Assembly (NCBI GenBank): GCA_018398815.1
Contig: JAFLJL010004111.1
Coordinates: forward strand, 1-64,000
DNA length: 64,000 nucleotides
Direction of reading: 5' to 3'
Source of the DNA: Conus ventricosus
Lineage: Eukaryota; Mollusca; Gastropoda; Neogastropoda; Conidae
The notes under the pieces were generated by a model, which made no database searches, was not told the DNA's origin, and saw only the letters and a program-made list of their open reading frames with translations. Below are positions 358-51,098 of this stretch, piece after piece (position 1 is the stretch's first letter; every line of letters begins with the position of its first letter). A program made the position numbers and the translations under genes.

Positions 358-448
358 AGAGAACTATAAAATGCAGCTTTTAGGTCACTTTCGCCCGAAA
401 ATTGGTTGAGGGCGAAAGTGAGTTAGAAGCTGCATTTTATAGTTCTCT
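358..448. repeat. Terminal hairpin 1
   Basis: A 91-nt imperfect palindrome: 39-nt left arm (358-396), 13-nt loop (397-409), 39-nt right arm (410-448). The arms pair fully except for one G.T wobble and a two-base mismatch bubble (GG opposite GT). The inner stem is TCACTTTCGCCC and the outer stem reads AACTATAAAATGCAGC. The hairpin sits directly outside the TIR tip. It is read directly from the bases. Confidence 0.85.
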
Positions 449-1549
449 CTCGGTGCGTTTCTGCATCGATTACAGGAAATTAAATAAGATCACTGTGTTC
501 GATGCCGAGCCCATCCCAGACATTGAAGAACTTCTGTGTCAGCTCTCAGAAGGAAATTATTTGTGAAAGTAGACTTGACTAAAGGATACTGCAGATTCCA
601 ATGGTTGAAGCTGACAAGGAAAAGACAGCATTTCAAACACCCTTTTGGTCTTTCCAATGGACGAAAATGCCATTCGGTTTGCAAAATGCCCCAGCTTCTT
701 TTGCTAAATGATGCGAGCCCTGAAACTCCATGAATGTGGTGCAGTCAGTTTTTTTGATGACATTTTGTTGGCTGCAAAGTCATGGAGTGACCTCCTTTCT
801 AACTTACGAGCTGTTTTTTCCAGACTCAGAAGTTTTGGTTTGACTGCGAGACCATCCAAAATTCGTGCCGGTTTTCAAACTCTCGAGTTTTTGGGTCACA
901 CTATTTCAGTGGGAAAAATGATGCCAGAAGGAGAGAAAGTGGAAAAGATTTTATCTTTACACAAGCCCACTACAAAGAAACAGATCAGGTCACTCATCGG
1001 ACTGTTGTCTTACTATAGACGATATGTACACCACTTTGCGTCCCTGACGGCCCCTTTGACTGAACTGACGAAAGGGACGAAGAACATAAGTATTGTGTGG
1101 TCTGATGGGTGCCAGAAGCTTTGGAGTGTGTTCAGAACACCCTCAACTCATTTCCTGTTCTTTTGTTACCCTCCCTCTCAGAAGACTTTATTTTGAGAAC
1201 CGATGCCAGTTCCAAAGGAATGGGAGCGGTACTGCTGCAGGAAAAAAGTGCTTTGTTACATCCCGTGCAATACGCCAGTAAGAAGTTCTCAAAGACACAG
1301 GAGAAATACTCCACTATTGAGAGAGAGTGCTTGGCTATTGTATGGGCATGTGAGAAGTTCGCCAGGTTCTTGACTGGAAGAAAGTTTCGGTTACAGACTG
1401 ACCATAGGCCATTGACGTTCTTGCAATCGTCAAAAACTAAGAACAGCGATTATTAAGGTGGTCTTTGGCATGGCAGGAATTCCAGTTTACAATTGAAACC
1501 AGTGCCTGGAACACAAAATGTCATGGCAGATTTATTGTCACGTGTATGA
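449..1549 (+). pseudogene. pol: Ty3/gypsy retrotransposon pol fragment (RT-RNase H)
   Basis: Three overlapping frames together cover a Ty3/gypsy reverse transcriptase and RNase H. Motifs in order: CIDYRKLNK (about 460), VDLTKGY (about 570), FQTPFGL then MPFGLQNAP (about 630-700), the catalytic FFDDIL (about 750), the LEFLGH connection motif (about 885), LIGLLSYYRRYV, the RNase H TDASSKGMGAVL (about 1200) and the DHRPLTF region (about 1400). Frames change near 590, 700, 1115 and 1450, and a stop ends it at 1547-1549. Gag, protease and integrase are not seen, so it is a truncated, inactive copy. The motifs make the family call secure. It lies between two terminal hairpins of the virus-like element, so it is spacer DNA and not part of that element. 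Confidence 0.9.
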
Positions 1550-2429
1550 ACAAATTCATGGACAAATGTAACTGTCTTCAAGGGAAAGACTATTCCTGTT
1601 TTTTGTCTTTCTTAATGATTACGGTGTGCTCACATTTGACAATGCATTGTATGCTACCGACTATTAAATCAAGTGGTATTTATGCTTAATTTGCTTGTTG
1701 AAGTGACTATATGTTTTACAAGCAAAAACTACTTGATGTTGATGTATTGCATATCTATTCTTTGCTTATTCTTTCGTAAACAATGAAGAAATCATCATGT
1801 ACTATTTATGTCTAACTTGCTTGTGAAGATGAATATATATGTATGTGTGATGAGCAAATAACTTTTTAGAAATGTATATACACATGTTTTGATTCTGCAG
1901 TGAGACAAACCTATTGTTTTCATTAGTTAATTGTCAACAATGGAAACATGTTTCACTTTTCAATGGACTATAACAATACATGTGGGGAAAAAAACTATGT
2001 TTAAACAATGTTAGTTTGTTTACATGTCTATTGAGAAACATTTACACTTAGAAATATTCTCATTTTCATGAGGGTTTTGTAACATATGATGTGAGACAAA
2101 GATCAAGGGAAAATATGTGCTTCACATCTTAATATATAAACACAATTTGTACTTTGAATTGTTAATATCCCTAATTGTTTTATCCATGTAATTTGTGAAA
2201 TGTATTTTGTGAGATATGGTGATCAATTATGACTTTTTTTTTAGAAAGACTGAAAGTTTGAAATATGCTATTTATGGTGGTTCATGATGATTGATTCTAT
2301 ACGTTGATTATTAATTTGGTGAATCATGTGTGATGGTTACACATTTTGAGATTCATGGCTGAAGATGTGTTTTAAAGTGAAGTTGTATATCCTTTAAAAA
2401 AAAATTTCTGGAGAAAATTTTTCACCCCA
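1550..2429. other. AT-rich non-coding tail of the gypsy copy
   Basis: No convincing coding frame is seen. The stretch is AT-rich and runs from the end of RNase H to a purine tract just before the putative 3' LTR. The integrase domain expected here for a Ty3/gypsy element is absent or decayed beyond recognition. Confidence 0.4.
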
Positions 2430-2659
2430 GGATGGGGGGTGTCATGTGACGTAGCCTCACATCAAGGCATGTGACGCTCCATCACATGTATTTTAGTGAT
2501 ATGAATCATTTCCCCATGCCACTACTGAAAAGGAAGAATATTTATGTGGCTTGACTAGTGTAGTGGGCGTCCCCAAAAATTGTGAGAATGACTCGGTAAA
2601 GAAACAAACGTGGTCATTGGGTAAAAGTGACCACTGAGAGATAGTTTAACAAGGGGTGG
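2430..2659 (+). repeat. Putative polypurine tract and truncated 3' LTR
   Basis: A purine run GGATGGGGGG at 2430-2439 is followed at once by TGTCATGTGAC, the layout of a polypurine tract next to an LTR starting in TG. The motif ATGTGACG recurs within the next 40 bp. The candidate LTR is cut at 2659 by a terminal hairpin, and no second LTR is in the window to compare, so the call is tentative. Confidence 0.45.
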
Positions 2660-2750
2660 AGAGAACAGGAAAAGGCGGCTTTTAACTCACTTTCGCCCTC
2701 CACCAAGTTTCGGGCGAAAGTGACCTAAAAGCCGCCTTTTCCTGTTCTCT
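2660..2750. repeat. Terminal hairpin 2 (left end of element 1)
   Basis: A 91-nt hairpin: arms 2660-2698 and 2712-2750 with a 13-nt loop at 2699-2711. All 39 pairs form except the same two-base bubble seen in hairpin 1. The outer stem (AACAGGAAAAGGCGGC) differs from hairpin 1, and both arms changed together. The inner stem TCACTTTCGCCC and the loop are shared. Confidence 0.9.
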
Positions 2751-2842
2751 GACAAGTAACCAAAAAATAACGATTATCTACAAACAGACATACTGTGTAG
2801 GGTTATCCGTTTTCAATACTAATTTACTAAAGTTTTCAGAGA
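2751..2842 (-). repeat. Terminal inverted repeat, non-ATPase end (element 1)
   Basis: Reverse complement of the TIR at 272-357 and 38.55-38.65 kb, running from GACAAGTAACC to about ACTAAAGTTTTCAG. It lacks the 10-bp GAAGTCTT segment found at ATPase ends, so the two ends of the element can be told apart. Confidence 0.85.
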
Positions 2843-2911
2843 GTAACGTAGGGGGAAAATAGCCGTGGCTGACACGCCCCATAGAGTAACGTAGGGGAAA
2901 AGCAGCCGTGG
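2840..2911 (+). repeat. Short direct repeat inside the left end
   Basis: Two near-identical units of about 29 bp, AGAGTAACGTAGGGG...AGCCGTGG, lie at 2840-2868 and 2883-2911. They sit just inside the left TIR of element 1 and are not seen at the other left end (21.5 kb). Confidence 0.7.
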
Positions 2912-5900
2912 TGCACTAGGCTATCCGATTACTTACTACGCGTGGTTGTTAATTACAGCGTGGGTTGTCAGCAGAGAGAGAGGCGCAGCCAAAGCCCGTT
3001 AAGGTCAAGTTCCCTCAGAGCAACGTGTGGCAATGATTGCTTTTTAATTTTAAATTTAAAAAAAATGGTTATTTTTTTTTTGTTTTTTAAACCCAATTGC
3101 CTTTAATTTAAAGAAAAAAAATTTTACAAAACTTTTAAAAGAAATTTTTTCCAATTTTTTTTTCAGGGAGGTTTTGTAACTTTAAAGGGGAAAGGGTTGA
3201 AAAAAAAAAAACAAAAAAAAAAAAAAAAAAAAAAAGGAAATCCAAAGGAAAAAAGGGGTCCTTTAAAAAAAAACCCCACAAGTATTTAAAAGGTTAAAGC
3301 CCCAAAGGGGGTTTTAATCCTTTTTGGAAAAGTTTTGGGGAAAGGTGACCAAAAGGCCTTTTTTTTTAAAAACCCAAAAAAAAACATTTTTTTCAAAAAG
3401 ACTTAACTTTTGTTAAAATTTGTTTAAATATAATTTAAAAAAATTTTTGGGGGGGGGGGGGAGAAACTGGGAAAGTGGTGGTGAAAACCCCCCAAAAAAA
3501 ACTGGGGAAAACCCCCCCGGGGGGTTTTAGGCAACAACACCCGGGATTACCCCCACCGGGTTTTTAATTAACCCTTTTTCCCCAAGCAAGGAAAGGGGGG
3601 AAGAAATTTAATTTCAAGGTTTCCCCCCAAAAATGTGGGAAGATTCGGGGAAAAAGGTTTCTTTTTAAAAACCACGGGGGAAAAGAAAAAAAGGGGCTGG
3701 GGGGAAAAGGGAAAAGGCGGCATTTCATCACTTTCCCCCTTCCACCACCAAAACCAAAACCCCCCCCACACAAAACCAAAAAAACCAACAAAAACACTAT
3801 TTTATTATTTTTTCTTTTTTAAATTTTTTCCCAAGAAACCCAGGGAAAAAGTGTTTCGTTCCCCTGAGTATCTTAAAAATAAGTCCCCTTTTAAGTTCCG
3901 TTTCCTAAAACCTGTGAAATTGGGGGGTTCCAAAAAAAACCGCCAAACCCCTTTAAACCCCTTTTTTCCCCCCCTTCCAAACCCCCCTTTGGTTTTTAAA
4001 ACATTTGCACGGGGGGCCCTTCTGGGGGAAACTTCTTTTCACATTTAACAAATACGGGGAATGGGCCCACACCCCCAACAACAACAAACACACCCCACAA
4101 ACAAACCAAAAACCTTTTATTTTCCTCCTCCCACTAAAAGCCGGTAGAAAAAATGTTTTTTTTCCTGTGTACTTTAAAAAATGGGTTGCTTTTTTAAAAT
4201 TGGGCGCCCCTTTTTCCGAAAACTTTTTGGGTTAAAAAAATTTTAATACCCCCATTTAAGTTTTTCCCCCCCTTTTAACCCATTTCTTTCCCACCCAAAA
4301 CCCAAAAAACATTTGCTTTTCTAAAAACCGGAGAAAAAAAAAAAGGGCCTTGACCCCCGGGAAATCAGCATTTCAATTTGGTTGGCCCCGGGGAATTTGA
4401 AAACCCAAAGGAAATATTTTGACCCGTTTAAGCAAATTAAATGTGTTTGAACTTGGTTGGTTCTTTTTAAAAAAATGGCCCCCGTTTGGAAAAAGGGTTG
4501 GGCCCAAAAAACAAATTTCCATCCTGCTTTTATTTTTCCGTGGTTGAAAGAAAATTTTTTTAAAAAACCCAAAAAAAGAAATTTTCTTTTCTACGGGCGG
4601 AAAAAAAAAAAATTTTGTTGATGTTGGGAAAATTACAACTTTCCGGGGTTTTTTTAAAAATAAAATTTTAAAGGCTATTTCCCAAGTAAAAATTTAAACT
4701 TTTTTGCAACGTAAATTTCATTAATTTACAAAAATGGGGGATTTTAAATTTGGGAAAAACAAAAGAAACCCAAGTACATCACCATTTTTGGGGGGTTTGG
4801 TTGGCCAGAAAATTAAATTTCCATAAAAGCTCTAACATGGGTTTTCATTCCCTGGGGGAAGGTAAAAGTCGGCTACAAAAAAATTAACCTTCGGGGTTTT
4901 TTTAAAACCAAAATTTCAACCCTTTAGAAAAAAAGGAGCAAGCGCAAACTACAGGAAACACCCAACAAATAAACTTTGGTTTTTCCGGGCCCCCAAAAAA
5001 ATAAAAGGGCAGACCCAAAGTAGCTGGGGCCCAAACTACCAAAACCAAAATACCGGGACGGGTGTACTGAACGGGCAATGGGCCGCCCTAAAACCCACGG
5101 AAAAACGGGCCAAACACCCAGTAATTTTCCCAAAAGGTTGAAGGGGCGGCGGGAAAAACCGGAAGCACAAACAAGGGAAAGGCCCAAATTTTTTTTCCTT
5201 TTTGGTTTTTTAAAAACCCCACCCCTTGCAAACTCCCCCCCCCCAATCCCAAAACCCCCAACCCCCCCTTCCCCAAAACCCCCCAAAACCCCAAAATAAA
5301 TGAAAACCCCCACGTAATCACTTCCCCAAAGTTTTAATTCCAGTACCCAATTTTTAATTAAGGGGGGCAAAAAGAAGTCCCAAATAGTTTTAATTTTTTT
5401 TGTTTTTTGTTTTTAATTAACCCCAAATTAACCAAAATTACCCCCCCCCAAATTTGAATGAACCCTTAAGTAAAACCAAGTTTTTAAACAAGTTTTTTTT
5501 TAAATTCAAAAAATTCAAAATTTTTTTTAAAAGTTTAAAAATTTTAAAAAACCCCTTAAAAAAGGTTCTTTTTAAAAAGGTTTTTTAATTGGTTCTTTTA
5601 AAGTTTTTTAATTTAAGTTTTTTAATTAAGCCCCCAAAATTGAATTAAATTCGGCCCTTTAAAGTCCTTTTAAAAAACTAGTTTTTTTTTTAAAATTAAA
5701 AAAAATCTTTTTTTAAACAAAAAAATAATTGAAATTTTTTAAAATCAAAAAAAAAAATTTGGGGTTCCCGAAAAATTTTTGAAATTTTAAATGGATCAAA
5801 ATAAATTTTTTGGTTATTTGGCGGGGGGTTTTTTTGACCCTTGTCTTTTTTTGTTTTATTTCAAATTTTTTCTCCCCTTTGTTTTTTCCAAAAATTTTTT

Positions 5901-5916
5901 TTAAAATATTATTTTT

Positions 5917-6138
5917 TTAAATGGAAAAAAGGGGGGGAGGGGTGGGTTTTTTTGGGGGCCGGGGGGGGGGGTTTTTTTCCCAAGGGAATTTTTTCAAAAG
6001 TTTGGGGGGCCCCAAAAATGGCAACGTTTTAAGTTCAAAAATTCCATGAAGATTTTGGGGTGCCTTTGAATTAACTTGCTCTTGTTCTGGAGCGGCATTG
6101 ATAAAACTTTTGGCTTGGGGGTTTTTTATTTTTTTCAT
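5917..6138 (-). CDS. Conserved fragment of unknown protein, left part
   Basis: A minus-strand frame whose N-terminal half resembles the frame at 23281-23445: both share an N/S-K-A-P core followed by L-x-G-I-x-E/N-L and a PFL(G/A)P stretch. Conservation of the amino-acid reading between two noisy copies suggests this strand is coding. The proline-rich rest of the frame (KKPTPPP) is an artefact of G runs. No function is recognised. Confidence 0.3.
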   Translation of the reverse strand: MKKIKNPQAKSFINAAPEQEQVNSKAPQNLHGIFELKTLPFLGPPKLLKKFPWEKNPPPRPPKKPTPPPLFSI

Positions 6139-6506
6139 TAAAATTTATTTTCCCGTGATTGAATTTTTTTTTTTCTTTGTCTGTTTAACTCTGCTACCCC
6201 TTTTTCCCTGCTCCCAACACGCTCGGGATGTTTACGGGCCCATTTTTTCTCGACTTGATTCAGTGTTTTCAAATTCAATGTTTCCTGATTCTGCTGTTTT
6301 GCCGACTCGTTCTTTTTGAAGGGAAAAAAAAATTCTATATATTAAAATAATTAATCCAATTTAAAACGGCGATAACAATTTTTTTTTTTTCCAAAACTGT
6401 AATAAAATCACAGCTTAGAGACCCCAATGACTTTGTTAAAACGGGATTTTGCTTAAATCATACAAAGATCTTTTTTCAGAATCAATGGGGGAAATCTACT
6501 GACTAT

Positions 6507-6767
6507 TTAGTGTACAACACTAAGAACCGTTTGTCCAACACTTTTTACCATTCCTCGACCCCGGGCGCGCCTCATCCCTTTTTGTGAAAACTTTATAATG
6601 TCTTCGGCAAACATCTGTTGAATCTTTTCTTTTCTAAATTTTCCCGCCAAGGAACGGTTTTTTTTTTTCCACAGCTCCCAAAAGAATAAAACCCTTTTCC
6701 CTTTTTTGGGGGCTAATACCCTTGACATAAACTCTTCTTTTGAATTTCGGGAAGGTTTTGGGCCCAC
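6507..6767 (-). CDS. Unknown basic protein fragment
   Basis: An 86-codon minus-strand frame, rich in lysine and arginine, ending FSQKGMRRARGRGMVKSVG...SVVH. The DNA has a poor counterpart at 23.83-24.1 kb. Its charge is consistent with a nucleic-acid-binding or core-type virion protein, but that is inference from composition only. Confidence 0.25.
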   Translation of the reverse strand: MGPKPSRNSKEEFMSRVLAPKKGKRVLFFWELWKKKNRSLAGKFRKEKIQQMFAEDIIKFSQKGMRRARGRGMVKSVGQTVLSVVH

Positions 6768-7149
6768 CCGAGCGGACAGATCATCGCTGTTCTTTGTTTT
6801 TTTTAAAATTTTTATTTTTTTTATTTTTTAAAATAGCACCGAAAAAACTTTTTCCCAAAACCTTTGGGTAAAACCCATTCTGTGTTATTGGGTCAAGTGA
6901 GATACTCAATGCTTGGAAAAGCCTGTTAAAAAATAAAACCAGCAATTTTGGCAAACTAACTTTGGGGATTCCCCCAAAGCTTAATCCTTTTAATTACAGC
7001 ACATTTGCTAGAAAGATTTTCTATTTAAGAAAAGGAATAATTCCGAGAATATAAATATGAAAAAAAATACTTTTAAACAAAAATGGTTTCATTTCGAAAT
7101 GATGATAGGTGGCGCGTGGTGAAAGCGTTTTCTTTTAAAGGGGGAAGAA

Positions 7150-8340
7150 AATTACGCATTTAAAAACTAGGGGATGAGGGCGAAGAAAAAGGGACAAAAC
7201 CCAAACCCTGTGGACAACTAGCTGCACCCAAAAGGGAATCGCTATAAAAAGCAAAAAAATTGAGCAGTTAATTTTTTTTAAAAAAACACACTAAAAAAAC
7301 CCGGGGCCAAAGCAGCTTACAAAATTTAAAAAGATTTTGACAACAATAAAAGAAAATTTCTAGTAACGGGAAAACCAATCGAGACATTGCCCCCCCCAAA
7401 ACAGAAAAACTTTTTATCAACCGCCCAAAAAACAAAAGATCCCAAAAAATTTCGCTTTTAAAAGTCTTTGGTATGACGGCCCGTGTATTTTTTTTGCGCA
7501 TAATATCAGCTAAATAAAAATAACAAAATCTATTATTCCCCCAAAAAGGATTTTGGGAAGGGAATAACAAAAATTTAAAAAGCTAAGCCAACGGGCGGAA
7601 GTCAGTGAACAAACGCAAAAGAAAGGTTATCTAAAAAAGCTTTTGGGGAAAATTTTTATTTACCTGCCCCTTTGGACGAATACAAGACCACACTTTGTAA
7701 ATACAACTCCAAGGGACACCCATAAAAATGGCCCTTCCTATTTTTTACCCTCTGATACATTGGGCAAAAAGATTTAATTTTCCCTCCCCGTCGGGAAGTA
7801 GCTTTCAAGATACAAAGACGCGGAACCATTAACACAAAAGAGGCTTCTGCTGTTGCTGTTCTATACAACGAATCAACGGGGCCCCCTTTAAAACTTACCC
7901 CGGGCATTTTCAATTGGGATGAGGGAAAAAAATTTTAAAGGCCAAGAGAATAAATTAAATTTTTAAAAACATAGATTTTACCATTAAAAGGGGCATTCCA
8001 GAGTTCACAGATCACAGGCTTTAGGAAAAATTTTAAAAAACCGTTAGCTGAAAGATTTTTTTCCCTACCAGAATCACAAGGCTTATTGACTTTTCCCTGG
8101 GTAACAGGGAATGGGTTAGAAGACTCCCCCTCATTTTTGCGCGCAATGAAAATGAAAAATTTTAAAGGGCCCCTAAAACCAGTACAAGCAATCAAATGAA
8201 AAAAAATAAATGTTCCCTGAAGGAGAGCCCTTCCCTTTCCAGCAAACTATTACCTTTTTGGTTTGGGAAAGAAAGGGTACCTTTTTTTAAACCGGGGGGA
8301 ACAGAAGGGGAAAACTCGCTCGGGGGCAACCATCCTTTTT
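7150..8340. other. Conserved region downstream of the polymerase, coding strand undecided
   Basis: This block is present three times (here, 24480-25580 and 26560-27650). On the plus strand a reading SAVAV...MIQVDDGKE is kept in the copies at 25.2 and 27.3 kb. On the minus strand a frame with V-N-T/I-N-T...KGT is partly kept at 8192-8422 and 27587-27826. Frames break too often to decide between them, and no family is recognised. Confidence 0.35.
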
Positions 8341-8349
8341 GGGGGGTGT

Positions 8350-11300
8350 TGACCCTTACAAAATAAAAAGAATTGTAAAGAAATCCCCCCGAATTTATTT
8401 TAACGAAAAACTGACACAACAAAACAACCAGCCCTCAAAGATTTTTTTAAAAGGAAAACTGCAGAAAACCCCCCAACACTTTTCCTTTTTAAAATTTAAA
8501 TTTAGGGTTTTCTAAAAAGTCCATATCCATAAAAACTCTATTAACAAACACACTTTTTGTGTTTGTTCATCTAACGACTTCCTTGTTAAAAACTGTTGTG
8601 TTGATCTCTTTGTAGATTAATCGCAGTTTTACGTTTGTCATATGAAAACCCTTATTGTTAAACAAGCTTTTTTTTGGAAGTTGTAAAGCGATATGCCCCG
8701 ACTGCACAAAAAGGGCGAGAAATTCCCTTTCCCTTTTTTAAAAGGGTTTTCCTCCTGGCTCGAAATACTTTTACATTTTTTACCTTAACCCCACATACCC
8801 TTAATCCCCTTTCCCCAGATAATTTTTTCCCTTCATTTTTCCCCTAAAACCCCCTTTTTAGAAATTTTAAATGAAAAGGGCGAATCTTTAGGATAATCAA
8901 TGTGTCTTTCCCAAAACCCCACCGTTTTCTTTAGTTTATTTCAAATTCCTTCTTTATAGTGTTTTCATGGGGAAATATATAAAAAAAACGGGTCTGTATC
9001 GTGAAAGGGAAACTCGGGACTCGGGGATACGAGGTTTTAAAGTAGTCATAAAAAAAACTCAAACCCAAATTAAAAGTTTTGGATAATTCAAAAAAACAGT
9101 AAACCCAATAAATACAGGTTGTCCAATTTGACTTTCTTTTCTTAAATCATTATCCCAAAAAAAAGCTGACCCATGAAATCTTCTGAAGTCCTGAAAATTT
9201 GGGTTTTAAAAGGTCAGCTTAATTGCTTCGTTCTTTTTGGGGGGGTGACCAATCACATCTTTGCGTTTGTGGGGAATTGGGCCATAGTTTTTCCCAAAAC
9301 AGCTGTTTTCATCGGGCCTTTAAAAAGCCCTTTTCTGAAGCATCTGTGGATTTATTTTCAAAGATCAGTGTTCCCCATGATTAGGGTTTTCCCATAAACT
9401 TTTTCTTAAAACCCAAAAGAAATTTAAAACGATAACTGCTGCCCAACTTCAAACCGTGTCTTAAATAAAATTGTAGAACCCTGTAATGACAACATTTTTT
9501 TTTTTCCCTCGAAAATTGGGCACAAGTTTAGGGGGCTCTTTTTTGGGCCATCTTTGGGTTTTTCCCTCTGCTAAGGGAAAGTCATTTTTGCAGGTCATGG
9601 AGTTCATGAGGATATTCTAATTTAAATTTCCCTAAAATTTATCCGCGCGTTGACACCGGGGCGTCAAACTGCTAAAACCCTTTAACCCCCTTTTTAAAAT
9701 ATTTTTCGTACCTGTGTACATTTTAAGTTGCGAAATGGAAGTGATTGCGCCATTCCCATCCTACAGATTTTTTTGCTCAAAAAACATGAATATTTTAGCC
9801 CTTTTATTTGGGGATCATAGCCCGTCCAAGTTTTGGTTGTTTTGCTTTCCCAAAAAGGTGCGACGCCAACAAAACCCCCACGAAATCCGTTTTCAATCAT
9901 TTTAACATTGGTGGGGTCAACAATAAATCAACTGTCTCCAGTAACTTTAAAAAAGGGCATCCCAGCTATCCCTGGGCCAGAAATATAATGCGCAGGATCC
10001 GGGCTATAATGTTTTCATGAAAGGTTTCTTTCTATAATTTTTTTAAAGACGTCTCCCAAACCAAACATACATGGGCCCATCAAGAAAAGAATAAATGATA
10101 GTCCCCATCTTTTTTAAACACTCAAAATTTCCCCAGGGAAATTTTGAGCTGCGGTAATCAAATCCCCAAATTTCCCTTTTCCCTCTGAGACTAGAAAAAA
10201 ACGGGGCCTTTGGGTGGAAGTGTATCTTCTTAAAACCCTTTCCCCAAACGTTCATGTCCCTAAGGGAAACCCCTTTTCCCTAACGAAATTTGGGTAAAAA
10301 TATTCTTCCGTTTTTGGGGCAGACTTTAAGGACATACCAGTGACCTAACAAAACCCAAACATTTTTGCATAAGCCCAAAAAAAAGAAAAGGTTTTTTTAA
10401 AAGTAAAAACACATGTTTTTTTTCTGATGACTGTGCAATCCCTGACACCCTAAGGAAACCCCCACTGCTTTCATTATAAGATGAAGTAAAAACCCTCCAA
10501 GTTATAAAAATACAGGCAGTTTCCATGTTTTTGGGTTTCAAATTTTAGTTAAATTGCAGTTGTTGTGCGCTGCCCTCTGAATTTTCCCGCTAATGTGATC
10601 ATGGCCCCTCTTATTTTTTGGAAAGGGTTCTTCACTGATTCAAAACCACAATCCAACAATGTGGGGCAAAGTCAACTGTTTTTTGGCTTAAAGGCCCCCA
10701 TTATGTTTTTCAATAAATTCAGATTTTTAGAACAATCATTACGCACTTGCTGCATGCTTTTAAAGAAGCATTCTGCAGCTTTGGCCCCTATATAATCTGG
10801 TGCTAAAATGACCCCAAACCGCCTAAACAATAAGAAGGGCAAATGAACCAATCTAAAGATTACTAAATTAAGACTTTTTTTTTCAAATTTTTTTGTGGCC
10901 TGGCCCTTAAAAAAGGGAACAATAAGCGACTCGAAAGCTGCGAAAAACAACCGTAGGGAAATTTTGCATCCGTTTCCATTTTCTTAAAACTAACTTTTAA
11001 GATCCGGGGGGGGAGTAATTAGTTCCGTATTACAGCCCCAACGGGGTTAATACAATGTTTTTATGTTCCACTCGCGGCTTGCACAATGGAATTTTTGGTT
11101 AAAAACATTTCAAACCAAAATTTCCTTTTTTATTTTTATGCTTTAAAGGGATGCCGCAAAATCAAACTCTTGTGCGTACAAGTGTAATGGGGTAGCCCCG
11201 CTGGTAAAAAACATTAGTAGAAATCAACAGGATTTTTGTCAAGCACGCCTATTGTTGGACTGTTTTTTGGGACGCTCTGTTGGTTTGTAGTTTTGTTTCC

Positions 11301-12810: not shown

Positions 12811-12834
12811 GTTTTTTTAAAAATGAAAAAATTT

Positions 12835-14150: not shown

Positions 14151-14190
14151 TTTTTTATAAAACAAAATAAAAAGTTAATTATTTAAAAAC

Positions 14191-37075: not shown

Positions 37076-37086
37076 TGTACTTAAAA

Positions 37087-40590: not shown

Positions 40591-40591
40591 G

Positions 40592-40619
40592 TCTTCTGGT
40601 CTTCTTCTTCTCCCCCCCC

Positions 40620-40660
<41 letters not shown>

Positions 40661-43640
40661 CCCCCCAACCCCCCCCCCCCCCCTCACTAAAAAATAGTCT
40701 TGGTTACACTCTAAGATCGGAAGTAAGGTCACAAGGCGCTGCTTGTTAAAAGAGTTAAAATAAAATACTATCATAATTATAACAATAAAACAGTGTGACT
40801 AAGGAAGTATTGGCCCCCTGCAGCAAAATTTGCGAACAAGGGCCCCCCCCCCCCCTTTTTCGCACTCTGGTTGATTCAAAAAAAAGTTAAAAGCAATGGG
40901 CCAAACTCAGCCATGCAACAGGAAAAACAACCGGGGAAGTAAAAATAGAAAATTCTGTCTAATATGCATTGATCTCAAAAAACTGGTTCGAATTAAATTT
41001 GTTTTTTTTTTTTAAATGAGATTGCATTTGTTGGCAAATCTGATGGCACCCGGCAGTGAGTTCCACAGCCGTACAGAAATGGGATAAAAAGAATGTATGT
41101 GCTGTCAATATTTGATGCAGGTATGGTATAACAATAGACCGACACTCTGCGTGCCTACTGTTGTAATTCAATACTAGTTGTTCCATTGACTTTTCGATTA
41201 CTTAGCTGCCTTTGCAGAAGCTGAAGATTAGTATATACGCTTCAGCCCGCAGAAAGACTCTCTCCTCTCTACGTTTTGTAAGATATGATCTACCCATTCC
41301 CCCCCCATTCGTGTTGTTCGCGCAGCAGTATCTCCTTCGCGCTCCTGATGTGCTTCCCCTGTTACGAACCGTGCTGCTCTTTCTTGAATCTTTTCGAGGT
41401 TATCATGTCATTAGATGGTAAAGGAATCCACAAAACGGAGCATCCTATTCCAGTAACTGGTCTAACCAGTGTTTGTAGAAACAGTCATCGCTTTAAACCT
41501 TTTGGGGGCCCCGGTCATTGATTTCCTGTATAAGAAAGTCACAGACTGTCCTATTTGACCCTTTCCCCTTACATACTGCAGTGTAATGGTCTTTCCATTT
41601 GAGACGGACTATCTATAATCATGCCTAAATATTTTGCAGCATTAGCTTTATTTAAGGGGAATTGTATTATGGTTAGACAGAATTAATCGTTTACTAATTT
41701 GTGAGCGTTTGTTACATTTACGCAACACTTGGCACTGTTGGGGATGAAAATCTCCTTTTCCAAGTTCTTTCCCACTCTTGTAAAGCGTTTAGATTCTTCC
41801 TTGTAGAATGCGTGTTTCATTCTTGCTTCTGCATGTTCTTATACTAAGGCTGTCATCTGCACAAAAGCCTTATAGTAGTTCCGGAGAGAGATTTCTACTT
41901 ATGCATCATTTATATTAAATTAAGAAAAAATAAGGGCCCATAACAGTTCCCTGTGGTACATTGACTGATGGTTTACAATGGGATGGACGACCCTTCCACC
42001 CTAAACCAACTTTCGCAGCATTCTCCCAAGCCATGAAACTGGATCTAGCCCCCATCTCTCCTAGCAAAGCCCCGCCATGTGCGAACTGTAGTCCTCTAAT
42101 TCTAAGCAGCAGGCCCTCTGGTACCACACAGCGCTCACAAAGCTTAGAAAAGTCTAATAAAATTGGATCTACTTTGCTGTCTGTTGATAAGGACAGTTAT
42201 TAAAATGCATTGGAGTTGTTATAGTTGAGTCTCCAACTCCTTCGTTGTCTAAAACCATGCTGGGCGCTATTTAAAAAAGTCATCGCATTGTCAAAGATGG
42301 TCCATTATATGATACCTCTATCTACTTATGCCCTGCGCGCTCTCGTGTTTAGCTGATATGGATGTAAGGATACAGGGTGTCTATGTGTGTGTATCTGCTT
42401 TTCCTCGCCCCTTCCCTTGTTCCACCACCTTTTTGAATCTCAGGAACATGTGTCGTGTTCTGCCACTCATCAGGTATTACTCCCGGGTCAGTGAAGTGGG
42501 TTATAGTAGTTGGGATACCTCACTCAATTCATTGGCATCCATACATTTTAAGAGCTTGCCAGGATCGCCTCGGGACCAGTGCCTTTGTTACTTTCATTGA
42601 TGTTGGTCAGTAACTTAAATTACTCTTGCTTTGTTAACTTTGATGTTTTGCATTTCAGGGCGTTTATCCTCATCCTTTAGTCTAACGTTAATAAAGGTTG
42701 GGATTTGGAGCACAACTGCCCCCCAAAAAAACTTTGCTTGTTTGTTAAGTTTGGCTTTCCTTCAGGTTCCGTATTAGGTTATTCTGGTTGTTTACGTGTG
42801 TGTGTGTGTAATCCAATGTAGTCTGTTCTCTTTCTTATTGTAAAGACCATATTTCTTGTTTGATGATACTCACTCTTCTGAAATTCGAATTTATTCCCCA
42901 ACCCCATAATTGCGCCCACGAGCCCGCAAGCCTACATTCTCTGACACCTTCTCTTATCTGTTTATACTAAACCAGTAATCTTTCTGATTAGGATGTAGTT
43001 TCAATTTCTTAAAGAAACGATGTTTTCCTTATCCCACATACGTTTTAGTTTTTGTAGTCTCTCGCACATGGTGGTTGTTCTTGCATGAAGTTATATTAGT
43101 AGGTATGTTGTCATCCATAATAAATTCAAGTTAGTTTTTCATCACTTCCCAAAGTCCCCATGACATTTCTTTTAACACTATAGGACCTCAACAATAGACG
43201 AACTGAAACTCATGAGCTAGCCTTGCGCAATTTTGTAACTTGCTTGGTCCAGAGTCTGATGGTACGTTTAGGGGGTTATCTCGAAAGGGTTGAAAAGTTG
43301 CTCTCTAAGCGAATTATGTCTGCTCACCGGCCTGCAAATTAATTCCTGGATTGCTAAAGCGCCTCGCGCTCATATTGGCTTTATAATATATGTGTGTGAA
43401 TGACTATCCCTCGCGCTCTAGGTGCTTTCAACTGACTGCACTACATCCAAGGTCTTTTGGTCGTATCAAAACCTGTGTATAAATATTTAAACTGTATGAT
43501 TACCAAGTCTGGCATCTTCACCCAATCAATATTGTTCGTTAAAGTCTCACCAATCCTATCTAGCCTTCTATAGGCACAAACAATGTTAGAAATGTTCTGC
43601 CGCTCGCGAACTACTTATCACTTACGCTAGGAGGATCATA
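40592..43640 (-). pseudogene. LINE (non-LTR retrotransposon), inverted copy
   Basis: Minus-strand copy of the LINE described at 46030-49235. The clearest frame, 41915-42127, contains VPQGTVMGPYFF (RT motif, about 41.93-41.98 kb). The plus-strand frames at 41.2-42.6 kb are its reverse complement and not genes. The 3' end abuts a TTC/GAA tract (40.58-40.61 kb) and then the minisatellite. Endonuclease-side sequence fades into C-rich noise at about 43.6 kb. No frame is intact. Confidence 0.75.
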
Positions 43641-44580
43641 CCCATGATCTCACCACTGACAGTTCTCTTATTCTTAAACATTCCTCATCACCATCCCCAA
43701 TCTCAAAAATCCTTTCACTCCACAACCTTAACGTACTTTCAATTCCACTTCCTCCCTCCTAAATACCCTAATACCATTTACACACCACACCCCCACCAAT
43801 ATAGACGCCTAACACATCTTCCTCTAACCCTAAACACCTCCCCCCCCCCTCCCCCCAATTAAAATTACTTATATAAAAAAAACCACCATAAAAAACTAGT
43901 TATCCTAACCCAACCATATCAACCACCCCCCTAGACTCTCCCTCTCTCCCCTCCACACTTAGAATCCACACACCCACCAACCCCCCTATACACTAACACC
44001 CCCCCCAACCCCTCCACAAACCCCCACCACCCCACCCAAACCAACTCACCCACATATTCACACACACCCCCCATCCACCCCCCCCCCCACCCCCCCCCCA
44101 CACCCCTTTCTAATTTTTATATTATTGTTTTTTTAATATTACTCGTTATAATATTAATAAATAACTCTTTTTCACGCTTCTCTTATTTATCTATCTCTCA
44201 TATTTATTTTTTATTATATTTTTTTTTTAATTTTTTAATTTTTTCTTCTTCTTATACTCTTTTTAAATTATAAACCCTTAACTACTCCAAGCCAATGTAT
44301 ATTTGTCTTTACCTATTCTCCTCCCAAAAATCACAAATATCCCACCAATGCTTTTTTTATTGTTCGGGTTGACTAATAATATTTTCACCCCCGAACTGGC
44401 ATAACTTTTCCAATTTTTATTGCTTTATTTTTTGTATAGTGTTTGCAAATGCGCTACACGAGCATGCATTTAAAGGTTCTCTGTTTCTTCTTAATGCATT
44501 TGGCGGTCTTTCAGGTGCAACCTTGTGATTGGGGCACTCTTGATCTCGTTTTAGATATCAGGCGGTGGATGCGCTCAACA
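43640..44580. other. C/T-rich low-complexity stretch
   Basis: The first half is almost free of G, with runs of C, A and T; the second half is AT-rich, then ordinary. The threonine/proline/histidine-rich frame at 43644-43862 comes from this composition. It lies near the axis of the large palindrome and is probably degraded base calling. Confidence 0.5.
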
Positions 44581-44702
44581 CGGTGTGTCTTTACCTGAGT
44601 GAAGGAATAATGTGTGACGTCACGTGTTTTACACTGAATGAAAACATTAATGTGTGACGTCAGTGTATTACACTGAATGAAGAATATGTGTGACGTCCAA
44701 GT
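44580..44702 (+). repeat. Minisatellite, short inner block
   Basis: Three to four units with TGTGTGACGTCA...TACACTGAATGAA, the LINE-proximal variant of the 38-bp unit. Confidence 0.75.
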
Positions 44703-45210
44703 CTATTCTTCTTCTTCCTTCTTCCCTACAATCACTGGTTCATCTCTCAAAAAACGTGTAGGCTCCCACAGCGGCAGGGCTCAAAATAGAAAATAAAATA
44801 ACATAAAAACATAAAACAGTGTGACTCAGACTGTGCGCGCACCACCTGGATCAATTCTCGGCTAACACCCAGGGTCGCCCCACCCCCCGCTACCACTCGA
44901 TATATTGCACAACTAATCCAGCCTTCAACCCCCAAAGCAATGGCCAAACTCAGGCCAGGCACAACAGTAAAAACACTCCCCTGGGGCATGGAAAGAATTG
45001 AAAACGCACGCCTCAATATGCAGATTCGTCAAATAACGGTCTAGACTATCATCATTTATATATATGATTCGCTCTTAACTGCAGATTGCATTTGTGCGAA
45101 CTCTTGCTCCCTGGCACCCGGCAGTGCTGTTTCCAGCCGTACAGAACTGGGCTAACACTAGAATGTAAGTCGGCACTGTCAATATTTGATGCAGGTCTGC
45201 GTATAACATT
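44703..45210 (-). pseudogene. LINE 3' end, inverted inner fragment
   Basis: TTC tract, then the reverse complement of the LINE 3' region, including the CACCCGGCAGTG and ATATTTGATGCAGGT landmarks that also occur at 41.05-41.13 kb and, inverted, at 48.8-48.9 kb. Confidence 0.7.
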
Positions 45211-45379
45211 CCGACCGCAACCGCCTGGTGCCTACTTTTAATCAATCGACGTTGCCCGTCCGCTCCACATTGAGCACATATATGTCTCTCTGCCCTTTTG
45301 CCACCGCCATCCTCCCGTTGTTGTTGCCCCCGTTGTTGAGCTACCGAGGATTCCCTTTCCAATGGTCATCATACTAGTA

Positions 45380-45865
45380 CTTGAATATCAAGCCCTCGCC
45401 CTCCCAGACGTGGCGGTCAAATGTCTCATACCCCTCTACGGCACTCAAATATGGCACAGCACACTTTACATCTCTTTTTTTCAGCTTCTGTACGGACTGT
45501 GGAACCTCACTGGCCCGCCCGGTGCCATCACAATGATTTCACCCAATGCAATTTCATTATCCAAAAACTACAAATTGAGATTCGACAGTTTTGAGATTCT
45601 GGCCCATATTGTACACCGCTTTTTATTTTTACTTCCCAGGTGTTTTACTGCGTGCCTGGGCCGGGAGTGTGGCCACCCATTTGCTTTTATTTTTTGAATA
45701 TCGAGTGGCGACCCCTTGTTGCCAAATTTGCTCCAGGCGGCCAACAGTCTGAGTCACACTGTTTTATGTTTTTTGTTATCTTCTTATTTTATTTTTAACA
45801 TGCGCGCTTGGTGATCCTACTCTTTTTGAGTGGACAAGTAGTTTAGGAAGAAAGTAAGAAGAAGA
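45380..45865 (+). pseudogene. LINE 3' end, inner fragment
   Basis: Mirror of the previous entry: CGCCCGGTGCCATCA, TTTACTTCCCAGGTGTTTTACTG, CCCCTTGTTGCCAAATTTGC, then GAAGAAGAAG at 45855-45870. It aligns with 48.9-49.2 kb. Confidence 0.75.
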
Positions 45866-45879
45866 AGCAGAGACTTGAC

Positions 45880-46020
45880 GACACACAGTATTCTTTCATT
45901 CTGTGTAATTACACTTGACGTCACCACACTTATTTCTTCAATCAGTGTAAAAACACTTGCTCGTCACACATTATTCCCCGTTCACTCAGGGTAAAACACA
46001 CGATTTGCATCCACACCCTG
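45880..46020 (-). repeat. Minisatellite, short inner block (inverted)
   Basis: Three units of CTTGACGTCAC...TTCATTCAGTGTAAA-type sequence, the mirror of 44580-44702. Confidence 0.7.
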
Positions 46021-46029
46021 ATTCTAAAC

Positions 46030-49000
46030 ACTGAAAAATCCCCAATCAACAAAAAGGCAAACTGCACCCCAAATCATTAAGGAGAAAAAGATAAACTTAA
46101 ACTGAATAGTCGTAAATTTTCAATCTATTTCATCGAAAAAGGGAAGAATTCAGTAACGTTAGTCACCGAAAAAAACAATTGTTGTTTGTAATTGGAACAG
46201 AAACTTGGGCTAGAAACCTGGTAACATCAGAGTGAACTTCTTATGGAGGATTCTCGGTATTTTAGAAAGGACAGACTTGGAAAAAGAGGTCGGGGGGTCT
46301 TGAGTTGCACATTAGGAAGAACTTAGGCCAGTGTGCTTTTTTATATCAAGGCCCAAAATAGTGAATGTTTATTTTGTAGGATTAATTTTTCAGAATAAGA
46401 GACCTGTCATTGCTTGGATCAGGTTTACAGACCTCCAGACTCAGATTGAAAATGTATGTTGTCTATCTGCGGAGACCATTTCTAACATTGTTTTGGCAAT
46501 TGGAAGGCAATATTATGGATGGTGGAGACTTTAACTTACCAGATATTGATTGGGGTGAATGAAGATGCCTATACTTTGTAATCAATACAGTAAAATATAA
46601 TCACTCAGTTTTTTGATACGACCAAAGACCTGGGATTAGTGCAGTCAGGAAGCACCAAACTGGTGGATGGTAAGGCATTCCTGGATATATGTTTTTACCA
46701 ATTGTCAAGGCGCTTTAGGCAATCAGAATTAATTGCAGCCAGGCCTGGGTGATCATGACATAATTCTCTTAGAGAGAACTTTCACCCCTTTCAGAGAAAT
46801 ACCCCCTAAACGTACCATCAGGACTCTGGAACCAGCAGATGTACCAAAATTGCGCAAGGATACTCATGATTTCAGTCGTTTTTTTTGAGGACCATAGCTG
46901 TTAAAGATAATGTCAGTGACCTTTGGATGTGTATAAAACTAACCTTGGTATTTATATGGATGACAACAATACCTACTAAAATTACTTTTCAAGCAAGAAC
47001 CACCCCAGCCATGGATTACTACAAAAACTAAAGTTTGTTGAGAAGGAAACATCGTTTCTTTAAGAAATTGAAACTACATTCCTAATTCAGAAGATTACTG
47101 TTAGGTATAAACATATTAGAGAGGTGACAGAGAGATGTAGGGCGGCTCACTCAATTATGTTAAGTCGAGGATTCAGAAAGGTGATCATTCAAAACAACGA
47201 ACTTTATGGTCTTACATAAGGAGTAAGAGACAGGACAACATTGGGATCCAGACTGTGAAACAACCAGAATAACCTAATACAGGACCCTGAAGGGAAAGCA
47301 AACTTACTAAACAAGTCAGTTGTGTTCAGTTCTCAAAATCCAAACCTTTATTACCGTTAGACTAAAGGTTGATGATAAACTCCTGAAATGCAAAACATCA
47401 AAGTAAACAACAGCGGGTATTTAAGTTAATGACCATCATCAATGAAAACAAAGCTAATGGTCCCGATGGCGTTCTGGCAAGCTCTTAAAATTATGTGCCA
47501 TGAATTGATGAGGCGTATACAACTACTTTACCAAAGCTTCACTGGACCAGGGGTTATACCTGATGAGTGGCGAGATGCGAGCATTGATTCCCTTATTCAA
47601 AAAGGGTGACAAACAAAAGCAGAGAATATAGCCCTGTACTCTCTTTATAAACCATAAAAACCATATCAGCATAAAACTACTTGACCACATATATAGAGTC
47701 GCATATGGACCATCTTTACAAATATGACTTTTTAAATAACGCCCAGCATGGTTTTAGAAACGAAGGCGTTGTGAGGGACTCAACCTTATTACAACTCTCA
47801 ATGATTTTAATAACTGTCTTAACACCAGTCAAGCACCAATAGATCCAATTTTATTAGATTTTCTAAAGCCTTTGTTAGGTTGGACCATGAGGGGCCTGCT
47901 GCTTAAATTTAGAACACATCGGCATTGGCCGGTTCTTTGCTAAAATGGGCTAGATCATTTCTCTGGGGTAGAACGCAGAAATTGTGTGGAAGGGTCGTCA
48001 GCCCATTGTAAACCACAGTCTTGTCAGGTGTACACACAGGGAAATGTTCTGGGCCCTTGTTCTTTCGTAATTTATATGAAATGACATAAGTTAGAAAATC
48101 TCTCTCTGGAACTACTATAAGGCTTTTTGGCAGATGACAGCTAGTATATAGAAAATCAGGGAAGCAAGAATGATTCACGCATTCTACAAGCAAGATCTAA
48201 ACCGCTTTACAAGAGTGGAAAGTACTGGGAAATGGAATTTCATCCCCAAAAGTGCCAAGTGTTGCGTGATATGGAACAAACCGCTCACCAATTAGATCAG
48301 ATTTATTCTATCCATAATATTATTCTTAAAGTAACTTATGCTGCACAAATATTTAGGCTATGAATATAGATAGTCGATCAAATGGAAGGAAAATTACTAT
48401 TCAGTATGTAGAAAGGCAAATCACATCTTAGCTTTCTTATCCGGTATATCAATGACTGCCCCCAAAAGGCTTAAAGATGATTGCTACAAAAACCACTGGT
48501 TAGGACCAGTACTGGAATATGGTTTTGCTCAGTTCTGGATCCTTACCATCTAAAGGACATTGATAACCTCGTAATTTTAAATTCAGGATGAGGAGCAGCT
48601 CGGTTCGGAAACAGGGAAACCACAGCAGAGAAAAGGGAATACTAAGGTAGAACATGAGGAAATTAGAATGGATACCCTTAGAAGAGAGAAGAGCTGTTTA
48701 TCAAACCTAACATCTTCTTCAAACGGCCAGAGCTAAGTAATCGATATTCCAATGAGAACAACTAGTTATTGATTATAAGTAGCAACAGGAGTGGCGGTCA
48801 ATGTTATACCATACCTGCATCAAATATTGACATGCCACTTACATTCTTTTTATCCCAGTTCTGTTACGGCTTTGTTTTTTTTTTTATGGGGGGGAAACTC
48901 ATCCTGCCGGGTGCCATCAGATTGCCACAATGATCTCATTTAAACAACAAATTGATTCGACAGTTTGGAGATCACGCATATTGTCGATTTTCTATTTTAC

Positions 49001-49235
49001 TTCCCCAGGTGTTTTACTGTTGCCTGGGGCCTGAGTTTGGCCCATTGCTTTTAAATTTTTGAAAAATCGTGTGCGACCCCTTGTTGCCAAATTTGCTCCA
49101 GGGGTCAACAGTCTGAGTCACACTGTTTATGTTTTATGTTATTTTTATTTAACTTTTTAAACATGCGCCGTGGTGACCTACTCGTTTTGAGTGAACCAGT
49201 ATTTTAGGAAGAAGAAGAGGAAGAAGAAGATTGAC
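46030..49235 (+). pseudogene. LINE with endonuclease and reverse transcriptase
   Basis: A non-LTR retrotransposon pol, frame-broken but well marked. Endonuclease: DGGDFNLPDIDWGE (about 46515-46560) and GLGDHDII (about 46745-46775). Reverse transcriptase: NKANGPDG (about 47450-47470), NAQHGFR (about 47738-47760), LLDF-x-KA (about 47855-47870), a decayed VPQG region (about 48.03 kb) and the catalytic FLADDS (about 48127-48145). The 3' part ends in a GAA-rich tract at 49207-49235 followed directly by minisatellite. The EN-RT order places it in the jockey/CR1-like or RTE-like group; the clade is not settled. In the region 46.33-46.53 kb an open frame covers part of the EN domain. Confidence 0.85.
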
Positions 49236-49237
49236 TC

Positions 49238-51004
49238 GTCACACAGTATGTCTTCAATCAGTGTAATACACCTTGACGTCACAATTATTTTTCATTTCAG
49301 TGTAAACACTTGACCCCCCCCGCCCTCAACCCCCCCCCCCCAACCCACACCCCCAAAAAACCCCCCCCCCCCCCTCCCCCCCCCCCCCCCCTTTATTCTT
49401 CATTCAGTGTAAAAACATTGGGACGTCACACATTATTTTCATTCAGTCATGTTAAAATTCTTCGACATCACACAATTATGCTTCATTCAGTGTTTTAAAA
49501 ACACTTGACGTCACACAGATCCTTCAGGTCAGGTAAAACACTTGACTCACCATTATTCTTCATTCAGTGTAAAAACCTTGAAGTCCACACTGTATTTTCC
49601 ATTCAGTGTAAAAACCACTTGACGTCACACTGTATTCCTTCTCAGTGTAAAACATTTGTGTCACACTGTATTCTTCATAATGGGTAAATTACATCCATCG
49701 CACATTATCCTTATATGCAGGGTAAAACCACTGAATGTCACATTGTCGTCTTTCATTCAGGGTTAAAAACACTGTGAATGTCCACAACATTATCCTACAT
49801 ACAGGCTAAAAGAACACTGAATGTCACATGTCGTTCTTTTTCAGGTGTTTAAAACACTGAAATGTCACACATTATCCTTCATACAGGGTTAAAAACACTG
49901 CTGAATGTCACAACATGAACCTTCATACAGGCTAAAACACTGAATGGCACAATTGACACTTCACACAGGCTAAAACAGAATGTCACACATTAACCCTTCA
50001 TTACAGGGTTAAAACACTGATGTGACATGTCGTCTTTATATTCAGGTTTTTAAAACACTGAATGTTACACATTATCCTCCACACAGGGTAAAACACTGAA
50101 TGTCACACGTTATCCTTTACACAGGGTTAAAACACTGAATGTCCACTTTTCTTTACCACAGGGTAAAAACTCTGAATTTCAATCGTATCCTTTACACAGG
50201 GTAAACACACTGATGTTACACATTATCCTCCAAACAGGGTTAAAACAATAAATGTCAACATTATCACTTTACCAGGGTAAAACACTGAATGTCACACGTT
50301 ATCCTTTACACAGGTTAAAACATGAATGGTTACACTTATCCTTTACACAGGTGTAAAACTCTGAATGTCAACGTTATCCTTTACACCAGGGTATATAAAA
50401 CACCTGAATGTTACACTTATCCTCCCACACAGGGTTTAAAAACACTGAATGTCACACGTTTTTATCCTTTACACAGGGTTAAAACACCTGAATGTCACAC
50501 ACTGTCCTTCACCACCGGATAAAACACTGAATGTCACACATTACCCTGCATACAGGCGTAAAACACTCGATGTGACATGTCGTCTTTCATGCAGGGTAAA
50601 AAAACTGAATGTTACACATTATCCTCCATAGGGTTGTAAAACACAGAATGTCACACGTTATCCTTTACACAGGGTAAAACACGAATGTACACGTTATCCT
50701 TGACACAGGGTAAAACCACTGAATGTTACACATTATCCTCACACAGGTTAAAACACTGAAATGTCACACGTATCCTTTACACAGGGTAACACACTAAATG
50801 TCACACATTGTCCTTACAACAGGATTAAAACACCGAAATGTCAACATTACCCTTCATACAGGGTTAAAAACACTGAAAGTGACATTTCGTCTTTCATTAG
50901 GGTAAAACCACTGAATGTTACACATTATCTACACCAAGTGGTAAAACACTGAATGTCACATGTTATCCTGTACACAGAGGTAAAACACTGGAATGGTCAC
51001 ACGT
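49238..51004 (-). repeat. 38-bp minisatellite array, right arm
   Basis: Reverse complement of 38739-40590: units with CAGGGTAAAACACTGAATGT and variable TCACACGTTATCCTTTACA parts. LINE-proximal units (49.25-49.65 kb) carry TTGACGTCACAC, and units towards the hairpin carry TGAATGTCACAC. A C-rich interruption lies at 49.31-49.39 kb. Confidence 0.88.
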
Positions 51005-51098
51005 AGAGTAACAGGAAAACACGGGATTTCTAACTCACCCTAGCCCCATCCTGGTTCGGGCGCTAGGGCGACCTAGAATTCCGGGTCTTCGATTCTCT
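51005..51098. repeat. Terminal hairpin 7 (left end of element B)
   Basis: Mirror of hairpin 6: inner arms TCACCCTAGCCCC and GGGCGCTAGGGCGA, outer AACAGGAAAACACGGGAT with CCGGGTCTTCGATTCTCT. The same fixed bubble (CTAAC opposite CTAGG) is present. Confidence 0.78.

What the first reader, a model, noticed from the sequence alone, without database searches (positions are those of the whole stretch)
358..51098. Terminal hairpins with compensating changes in the stem and a fixed bubble and loop
Seven element ends each carry a hairpin of about 91 nt just outside the terminal inverted repeat. Outer stems differ between ends (AACTATAAAATGCAGC, AACAGGAAAAGGCGGC, AACAGGAAAACACGGAT), inner stems differ (TCACTTTCGCCC versus TCACCCTAGCCC), and in the well-read hairpins both arms change together so pairing is kept. 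In contrast, a two-base mismatch (TAGG opposite AGTTA) and the 13-nt loop GAAAnTTGGTnGA are unpaired yet fixed, and their orientation relative to the TIR never flips. Covarying pairs with conserved unpaired parts mean the folded structure is used. Established parallel: parvovirus hairpin telomeres contain an asymmetric bubble needed for end resolution. Hairpin ends on an element with a Polinton-type gene set are, to my knowledge, undescribed; this is inference.
Basis: partly seen in the sequence, partly recalled or inferred. Interest (0 to 1): 0.92.

Follow-up and report, generated by a model that had tools for sequence, protein, structure and literature searches.

The report
Polinton-type transposons tipped with covarying hairpins
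A family of virus-like transposons in this animal-like genome ends in a 91-base DNA hairpin whose two arms change together from copy to copy, a kind of DNA end known from parvoviruses and, as far as our searches show, not described for this kind of element.

Summary
The hairpins are real, and they are the outermost bases of the element, not sequence outside it. The window lies in an unnamed 3.5-Gb assembly; I read 103 hairpin ends there. Of 16 element pairs with intact tips, 12 have an exact target duplication (11 of 5 bp, 1 of 6 bp) flush with the hairpin; 0 of 307 mismatched pairings do. The hairpin is a 25-bp outer stem, a 2x2 bubble (AC/CC), a 12-bp inner stem and a loop of about 13 nt. 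On 40 of 55 distinct sequences 98.0% of pair cells are paired (shuffles 88.6%) and 13 of 37 pairs change on both sides; G-T pairs are not in excess, so pairing looks DNA-level. The bubble is nearly invariant and no flipped end was seen; the loop is conserved but not fixed. In three elements with exact duplications the two ends differ by changes matched in both arms, which points to arm-to-arm copying within an end. The elements carry an rve integrase, an A32-type ATPase and polymerase-B-like fragments. Corrections: the window is error-rich, and two of its ends mirror each other in one fold-back. Terminal hairpin: well supported. Its use in replication: inferred.

The parts
358..448 (-). Terminal hairpin of an element that extends to the left (outer-to-inner reading on the minus strand)
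   Evidence: same flank in another contig, locus L004
282..357 (-). Terminal inverted repeat of that element, inside the hairpin
   Evidence: matches 2817-2659, 38572-38655, 51170-51093, 21447-21292
2660..2750 (+). Terminal hairpin, left end of the element 2660-19155
   Evidence: the same 91 bases at two other places in the assembly
2751..2840 (+). Terminal inverted repeat inside the hairpin
2660..19155 (.). One element copy bounded by two hairpins (16.5 kb)
   Evidence: six facing pairs listed are 14.5-16.7 kb; target duplication not resolved here
19052..19155 (-). Terminal hairpin, right end, degraded by sequence errors
21289..21383 (+). Terminal hairpin, left end of the next copy, error-rich
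25575..25670 (+). Degraded hairpin of right-end type in left orientation, heading a 0.9-kb inverted piece of the right end (to 26541)
38650..38737 (-). Terminal hairpin, right end, third stem type (CACGGAT; inner stem CCCTAGCCC)
   Evidence: clean copies elsewhere
51005..51097 (+). Terminal hairpin, third stem type; mirror image of 38650-38737 within the fold-back
30485..59299 (.). Large fold-back: 30485-45189 against 45445-59299, probably an assembly or read artefact
29451..29828 (-). Fragment of a type B DNA polymerase gene
   Evidence: relatives named DNA-directed DNA polymerase or bearing PF03175
60377..60946 (+). Fragment of an element protein of about 300-330 aa, function unknown, with relatives in Mytilus

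Best explanation
This is a Polinton/Maverick-type self-synthesising element whose extreme ends are 91-nt imperfect palindromes. SHOWN: hairpin plus adjacent repeat form the terminal inverted repeat; integration mostly makes 5-bp duplications flush with the hairpin; arms covary as Watson-Crick pairs; the 2x2 bubble and the orientation are nearly constant. INFERRED: the element replicates as linear DNA, probably protein-primed by its type B polymerase from the AGAG tip; displaced single strands fold at their ends into the hairpin. While folded, a changed arm is at times corrected or resynthesised on its partner arm, which keeps the arms complementary; the two ends are made alike through the terminal repeats of a single strand. 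The bubble marks which arm is which and is kept by selection, as an asymmetric recognition or resolution site or a block to full self-copying. Before integration the end is opened into full duplex, because both arms are present in the intact inserted copies and the integrase joined the outer edge.
For: Duplications flush with the hairpin in 12 of 16 intact-tip pairs, against 0 of 307 five- or six-base matches in mismatched pairings; a further pair, L081/L080, has ATTGT on both sides. Covariation on 40 of 55 distinct hairpins: 98.0% of 1476 cells paired against 88.6% shuffled, 141 cells changed on both sides against 43.4, covariation score 0.248 against 0.079, each 0 of 500 shuffles; slid structures at most 48.3% paired. 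On all 55: 1934 of 2019 cells Watson-Crick. A change not seen in other ends read is shared by both arms and both ends in L023/L024 and L112/L113. Ends that differ by changes matched in both arms: L054/L022 (2 pairs), L038/L064 (2 pairs), L006/L046 (1 pair), each with an exact duplication. Bubble on 40 distinct hairpins: AC 40 of 40, CC 39 of 40; AC/CC by pattern in 97 of 103 ends. Repeat on the inner side in 79 of 82 ends with flank enough on both sides, undecided in 3, outside in 0. Integrase PF00665 at 41.1 and 37.4 bits, A32 ATPase at 59 bits; polymerase relatives.
Against: No direct evidence of a folded or single-stranded form. The same three elements with paired end differences also have unpaired stem differences (3, 1 and one deletion). 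Some mismatches persist in several copies (C opposite A at columns 23/72 in 5 rows; A opposite C at 30/65 in all seven rows of the third type), and L002/L003 share one at both ends, so arm correction is not efficient at every round. One covariation measure, further pair types, does not exceed the shuffles (474 of 500 as high). The 15 distinct hairpins left out of that count pair less well (489 of 543 cells). Most ends were found by similarity to a hairpin, which inflates apparent conservation; of 23 partner regions taken by position alone, 13 had a hairpin, 6 had none and 4 were withheld. Protein priming is inferred from the polymerase type.
Confidence: 0.66

Rival explanations
1. The palindrome is only a large symmetric binding site (for the integrase or a protein that binds the terminal repeat). 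Selection on binding keeps both halves; no fold ever forms.
For: The hairpin lies exactly where the integrase must act; the bases AGAGAAC at the tip are nearly invariant: 98 of 103.
Against: A sequence-specific site would conserve letters, yet 13 of 37 pairs change on both sides, and two elements carry changes of their own in both arms at both ends (L023/L024, L112/L113), which independent mutation would rarely give.
Confidence: 0.15
2. The hairpin works as RNA: it is transcribed and its RNA fold (processing, packaging or small-RNA precursor) is selected.
For: Stable fold; covariation is the usual sign of RNA structure.
Against: G-T cells are not in excess: 1 of 31 imperfect cells on 40 rows, 16 of 85 on all 55 rows, about the one in six that chance gives; RNA selection should favour G-U steps. 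No Rfam match in the window at gathering thresholds. It sits at the extreme tip of both ends.
Confidence: 0.08
3. Full parvovirus-like rolling-hairpin replication: rounds of copying invert the terminal palindrome and a nickase resolves it.
For: Terminal palindrome with a mismatched bubble; MVM has a GA/GAA bubble, and earlier work cited in PMC1185569 suggested that the LuIII left end exists only in the flip form (passages seen).
Against: Inversion alone does not make arms match. No flipped end among 82 that could be judged on both sides, 3 undecided. No Rep/NS1-like family in the 30 proteins scanned, although not every gene was scanned.
Confidence: 0.12
4. Host DNA or a recent segmental duplication, or a separate hairpin repeat that these elements happened to enter.
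For: The window itself holds a large fold-back; a few ends share a flank (L001/L004, L019/L020, L075/L076).
Against: Different flanks at the other ends compared, and flush target duplications.
Confidence: 0.01

Closest known systems
Polinton/Maverick (polintovirus, adintovirus) elements
   Same: 14.5-16.7 kb, terminal inverted repeats, rve integrase, A32-type packaging ATPase, polymerase-B-like fragments, many copies in an animal-like genome
   Different: The extreme tip of the repeat is a 91-nt covarying hairpin with a nearly fixed bubble; target duplications are mostly 5 bp rather than the 6 bp recalled for Polintons (5-6 bp is given for polinton-like viruses in PMC12220804, passage seen). 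No report of such hairpins in the literature searches listed.
Parvovirus terminal hairpins (MVM, LuIII left end)
   Same: Imperfect terminal palindrome, mismatched bubble, a single orientation suggested for the LuIII left end (PMC1185569, passages seen)
   Different: No NS1/Rep found in the proteins scanned; element about three times larger than a parvovirus (size recalled); carries integrase and polymerase; both ends of the same kind
Bidnaviridae
   Same: A lineage thought to join Polinton polymerase and terminal repeats with parvovirus genes
   Different: PMC4061559 (passages seen) says bidnavirus terminal repeats do not form parvovirus-type hairpins
Helitrons
   Same: A terminal hairpin takes part in replication end signalling (PMC6431247, passage seen)
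   Different: Helitrons lack target duplications and long inverted repeats and have one small 3' hairpin (recalled)

Membership tests
Polinton/Maverick | Retroviral-type (rve) integrase | tested here: met
   PF00665 41.1 and 37.4 bits, cut-off 32.6, in two element copies
[quoted passage not shown]
   Relatives of a fragment bear PF03175 or are named DNA-directed DNA polymerase; direct Pfam score below cut-off (12.7 against 25.8); the terminal-protein domain was not tested
Polinton/Maverick | A32/FtsK-type packaging ATPase | tested here: met
   PF04665 59 bits, cut-off 22.8
Polinton/Maverick | Double jelly-roll major capsid protein and penton | not tested
   Further reading frames seen gave no Pfam match above cut-off; no fold was run
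Polinton/Maverick | Terminal inverted repeats beginning 5'-AG (recalled) | tested here: met
   98 of 103 hairpins begin AGAGAAC and 97 of 103 end GTTCTCT
Polinton/Maverick | 6-bp target duplication (recalled) | tested here: not met
   Of 16 intact-tip pairs, 11 have exactly 5 bp, 1 has 6 bp and 4 have none exact. 5-6 bp is reported for polinton-like viruses, so I say 'Polinton-type' and do not claim strict membership
Parvoviridae | Terminal imperfect palindrome with bubble | tested here: met
Parvoviridae | NS1/Rep with HUH nickase and SF3 helicase | tested here: inconclusive
   No match among 30 proteins scanned against Pfam; not all genes covered
Parvoviridae | Flip/flop orientations where hairpin transfer is symmetric (recalled) | tested here: not met
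   Repeat on the inner side in 79 of 82 ends judged, undecided in 3, outside in 0

The most novel reading that the evidence does not exclude
An integrase-carrying element with a type B polymerase that also keeps fold-back telomeres: at least in some cycles its ends are copied by hairpin self-templating, a hybrid of adenovirus-like and parvovirus-like end replication. It would be a model, perhaps a missing link, for how Polinton polymerases and parvovirus genomes could merge (Bidnaviridae).
Probability: 0.35. Interest if true: 0.9.

Novelty: new variant of a known kind. Interest (0 to 1): 0.78.

Why it matters
How Polintons copy their ends is inferred largely from the type of their polymerase. 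Here many natural copies record, base by base, which parts of the end are copied from each other (arm to arm, end to end) and which are kept (bubble, tip). That makes end replication testable by end mapping and in vitro assays, and joins two replication styles usually kept apart.

Tried and rejected
Rejected: integration beside a pre-existing host hairpin (duplications abut the hairpin); one segmental duplication (different flanks); RNA fold (no G-T excess; no Rfam match in the window); seven independent ends (fold-back). Led nowhere: exact-pattern scans of viral contigs (two) and genome contigs (one), 0 matches; protein-based scans of viral contigs (two) and genome contigs (one), no relative confirmed, so no other species could be compared. 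The repeat-only search of the assembly returned nothing; the tool skips very common words, so this shows nothing, and a wholly hairpin-blind sample was not obtained. The 23 positional partner regions are the nearest to it. An ATPase-based sample was asked for six times and never answered. A search meant to identify the host was asked for twice and never answered; the host is not identified. A PDB search with a polymerase-like fragment gave nothing significant. Alignment A2 holds 40 of 55 distinct hairpins; the 15 left out are mostly indel-rich or tip-damaged rows and pair less well (489 of 543 cells), so the count on A2 favours my reading somewhat.
Full report
What is there. Seven ends in the window carry the hairpin, two of them cleanly (358-448 and 2660-2750); the seventh, near 25.6 kb, is badly degraded. 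The fold is a 25-bp outer stem, a 2x2 internal loop with AC on the outer arm and CC on the inner arm, a 12-bp inner stem and a 13-nt loop. As DNA the three hairpins tested give -34.8 to -43.3 kcal/mol, and 0 of 200 shuffles of each fold as well; in 358-448 one more mismatch widens the internal loop.

The window has faults. Much of it is rich in base-call errors. Positions 30.5-45.2 kb match 45.4-59.3 kb in inverted orientation in several pieces of 68-82% identity, with about 255 bp between the arms. The ends at 38737 and 51005 are therefore mirror images and count once. A second unplaced contig may show the same habit (C8753, identical flanks on both hairpins). The window is the first 64 kb of a 69.9-kb contig of a 3.52-Gb assembly.

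The hairpin is the tip of the element. Three searches of the assembly each scored 40 places; first-look candidates, mostly unscored, numbered 1769, 1218 and 464. I read 103 ends: the 40 (loci), 13 partner ends found by position, 30 of the 40 and 20 of the 40. They include two ends of the window itself and a second reading of one window locus (L004). In 20 pairs of facing ends the flanks were compared; 16 pairs have both tips intact. 11 of the 16 show an exact 5-bp duplication and one a 6-bp duplication directly outside AGAGAAC. Among 307 mismatched left-right pairings there were none of 5 or 6 bp and two of 4 bp. Of the four intact-tip pairs without an exact duplication, three match in 4 of 5 bases and one (L048/L012) has the same five bases displaced by two. 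One further pair not in that count, L081/L080, has ATTGT on both sides. The hairpin is thus moved with the element, and the integrase joined its outer edge.

Covariation. The 103 ends give 55 distinct hairpins. On 40 of them, 13 of 37 pairs change on both sides, 141 cells carry such a change (shuffled mean 43.4, 0 of 500), 98.0% of cells pair (shuffled 88.6%, 0 of 500), and structures slid by 1 to 3 columns pair in at most 48.3%. 'Further pair types' does not exceed the shuffles (474 of 500 as high), so that measure gives no support. Related copies inflate the shuffle control. The 40 rows hold 1445 Watson-Crick, 1 G-T and 30 mismatched cells; all 55 hold 1934, 16 and 69 (the 15 added rows are indel-rich and partly out of register). 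G-T is at most about the one in six of imperfect cells that chance gives, so nothing points to RNA. Three groups differ in the outer stem (TATAAAATGCAGC, AGGAAAAGGCGGC, AGGAAAACACGGAT), the third also in the inner stem.

What the copies say about mechanism. Two kinds of copying are visible. End to end: a paired change not seen in other ends read occurs at both ends of one element in L023/L024 and L112/L113; L025/L026 also agree at both ends, but their type occurs in other elements. Arm to arm: in L054/L022, L038/L064 and L006/L046, each with an exact duplication, the two ends differ at 2, 2 and 1 pairs with both arms changed together. The same comparisons also show unpaired stem differences: 3, 1 and one deletion. 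Independent double mutation is unlikely in such similar copies; copying of one arm from the other while folded is the simplest account (inference). It is not complete: a C opposite A at columns 23/72 recurs in 5 rows and A opposite C at 30/65 in all seven rows of the third type, and L002/L003 carry the same mismatch at both ends. The bubble survives this: AC in 40 of 40 and CC in 39 of 40 distinct hairpins, and AC/CC by pattern in 97 of 103 ends. Orientation: of 82 ends with 150 bases on both sides, the repeat lies inside in 79, is undecided in 3 and outside in 0. Inversion of the palindrome at each round, as in symmetric rolling-hairpin replication, would randomise it.

Genes. Interior pieces from four copies and other loci gave an rve integrase (41.1 and 37.4 bits), an A32-type ATPase next to the right end (59 bits) and polymerase-B-like fragments (relatives with PF03175). 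A protein of about 300-330 aa has relatives in Mytilus. No Rep, NS1 or resolvase family appeared among 30 proteins scanned. Capsid proteins were not tested.

Sampling. Ends chosen by similarity to a hairpin inflate conservation, although a flipped hairpin would have been found as easily. Of 23 partner regions taken by position alone, 13 carry the hairpin, 6 do not (two of these hold partial repeat sequence) and 4 were withheld. A hairpin-blind genome search was not obtained.

Comparison. MVM has a mismatched GA/GAA bubble, and LuIII's left end was suggested to exist only in the flip form (PMC1185569, passages seen). Bidnaviruses are thought to have taken Polinton polymerase and terminal repeats, but their repeats do not form such hairpins (PMC4061559, passages seen). 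Polinton-like viruses are sometimes flanked by 5-6-bp duplications (PMC12220804, passages seen). Listings and passages show no hairpin-tipped Polinton. The AGAG tip is a dinucleotide repeat, as sliding-back protein priming would need (recalled).

Verdict. Structure and position: firm. Arm-to-arm copying: likely. Use as a replication telomere: plausible, not shown.

Noticed in passing
30485-59299: Fold-back of about 14 kb per arm with a spacer of about 255 bp; likely a read or assembly artefact.
   Followed up: partly
38739-39707 and 49701-51002: Inverted 38-39-bp tandem arrays directly outside the third-type hairpins; both ends abut the same place of the repeat unit, as expected if they mirror each other.
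   Followed up: partly
25575-27619: A 0.9-kb inverted right-end piece with its own hairpin, between direct repeats of about 1 kb; looks like a defective snap-back copy or a misjoin.
   Followed up: partly
527-1453: Ty3-like reverse transcriptase fragments beside the element end at 448 (RVT_1 32.4 bits for 708-1193).
   Followed up: no
52677-57453 and 59303-64000: Direct repeat of the same element segment at 83% identity, a second join in this contig.
   Followed up: no
L010, L011, L012, L013, L015, L016: Copies that lack GACAAGTAAGAC between hairpin and repeat, as if the hairpin had been re-joined to the repeat.
   Followed up: no
L099-L118: Most loops of the third hairpin type hold the self-complementary CCTAGG, which could pair between two ends.
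   Followed up: no
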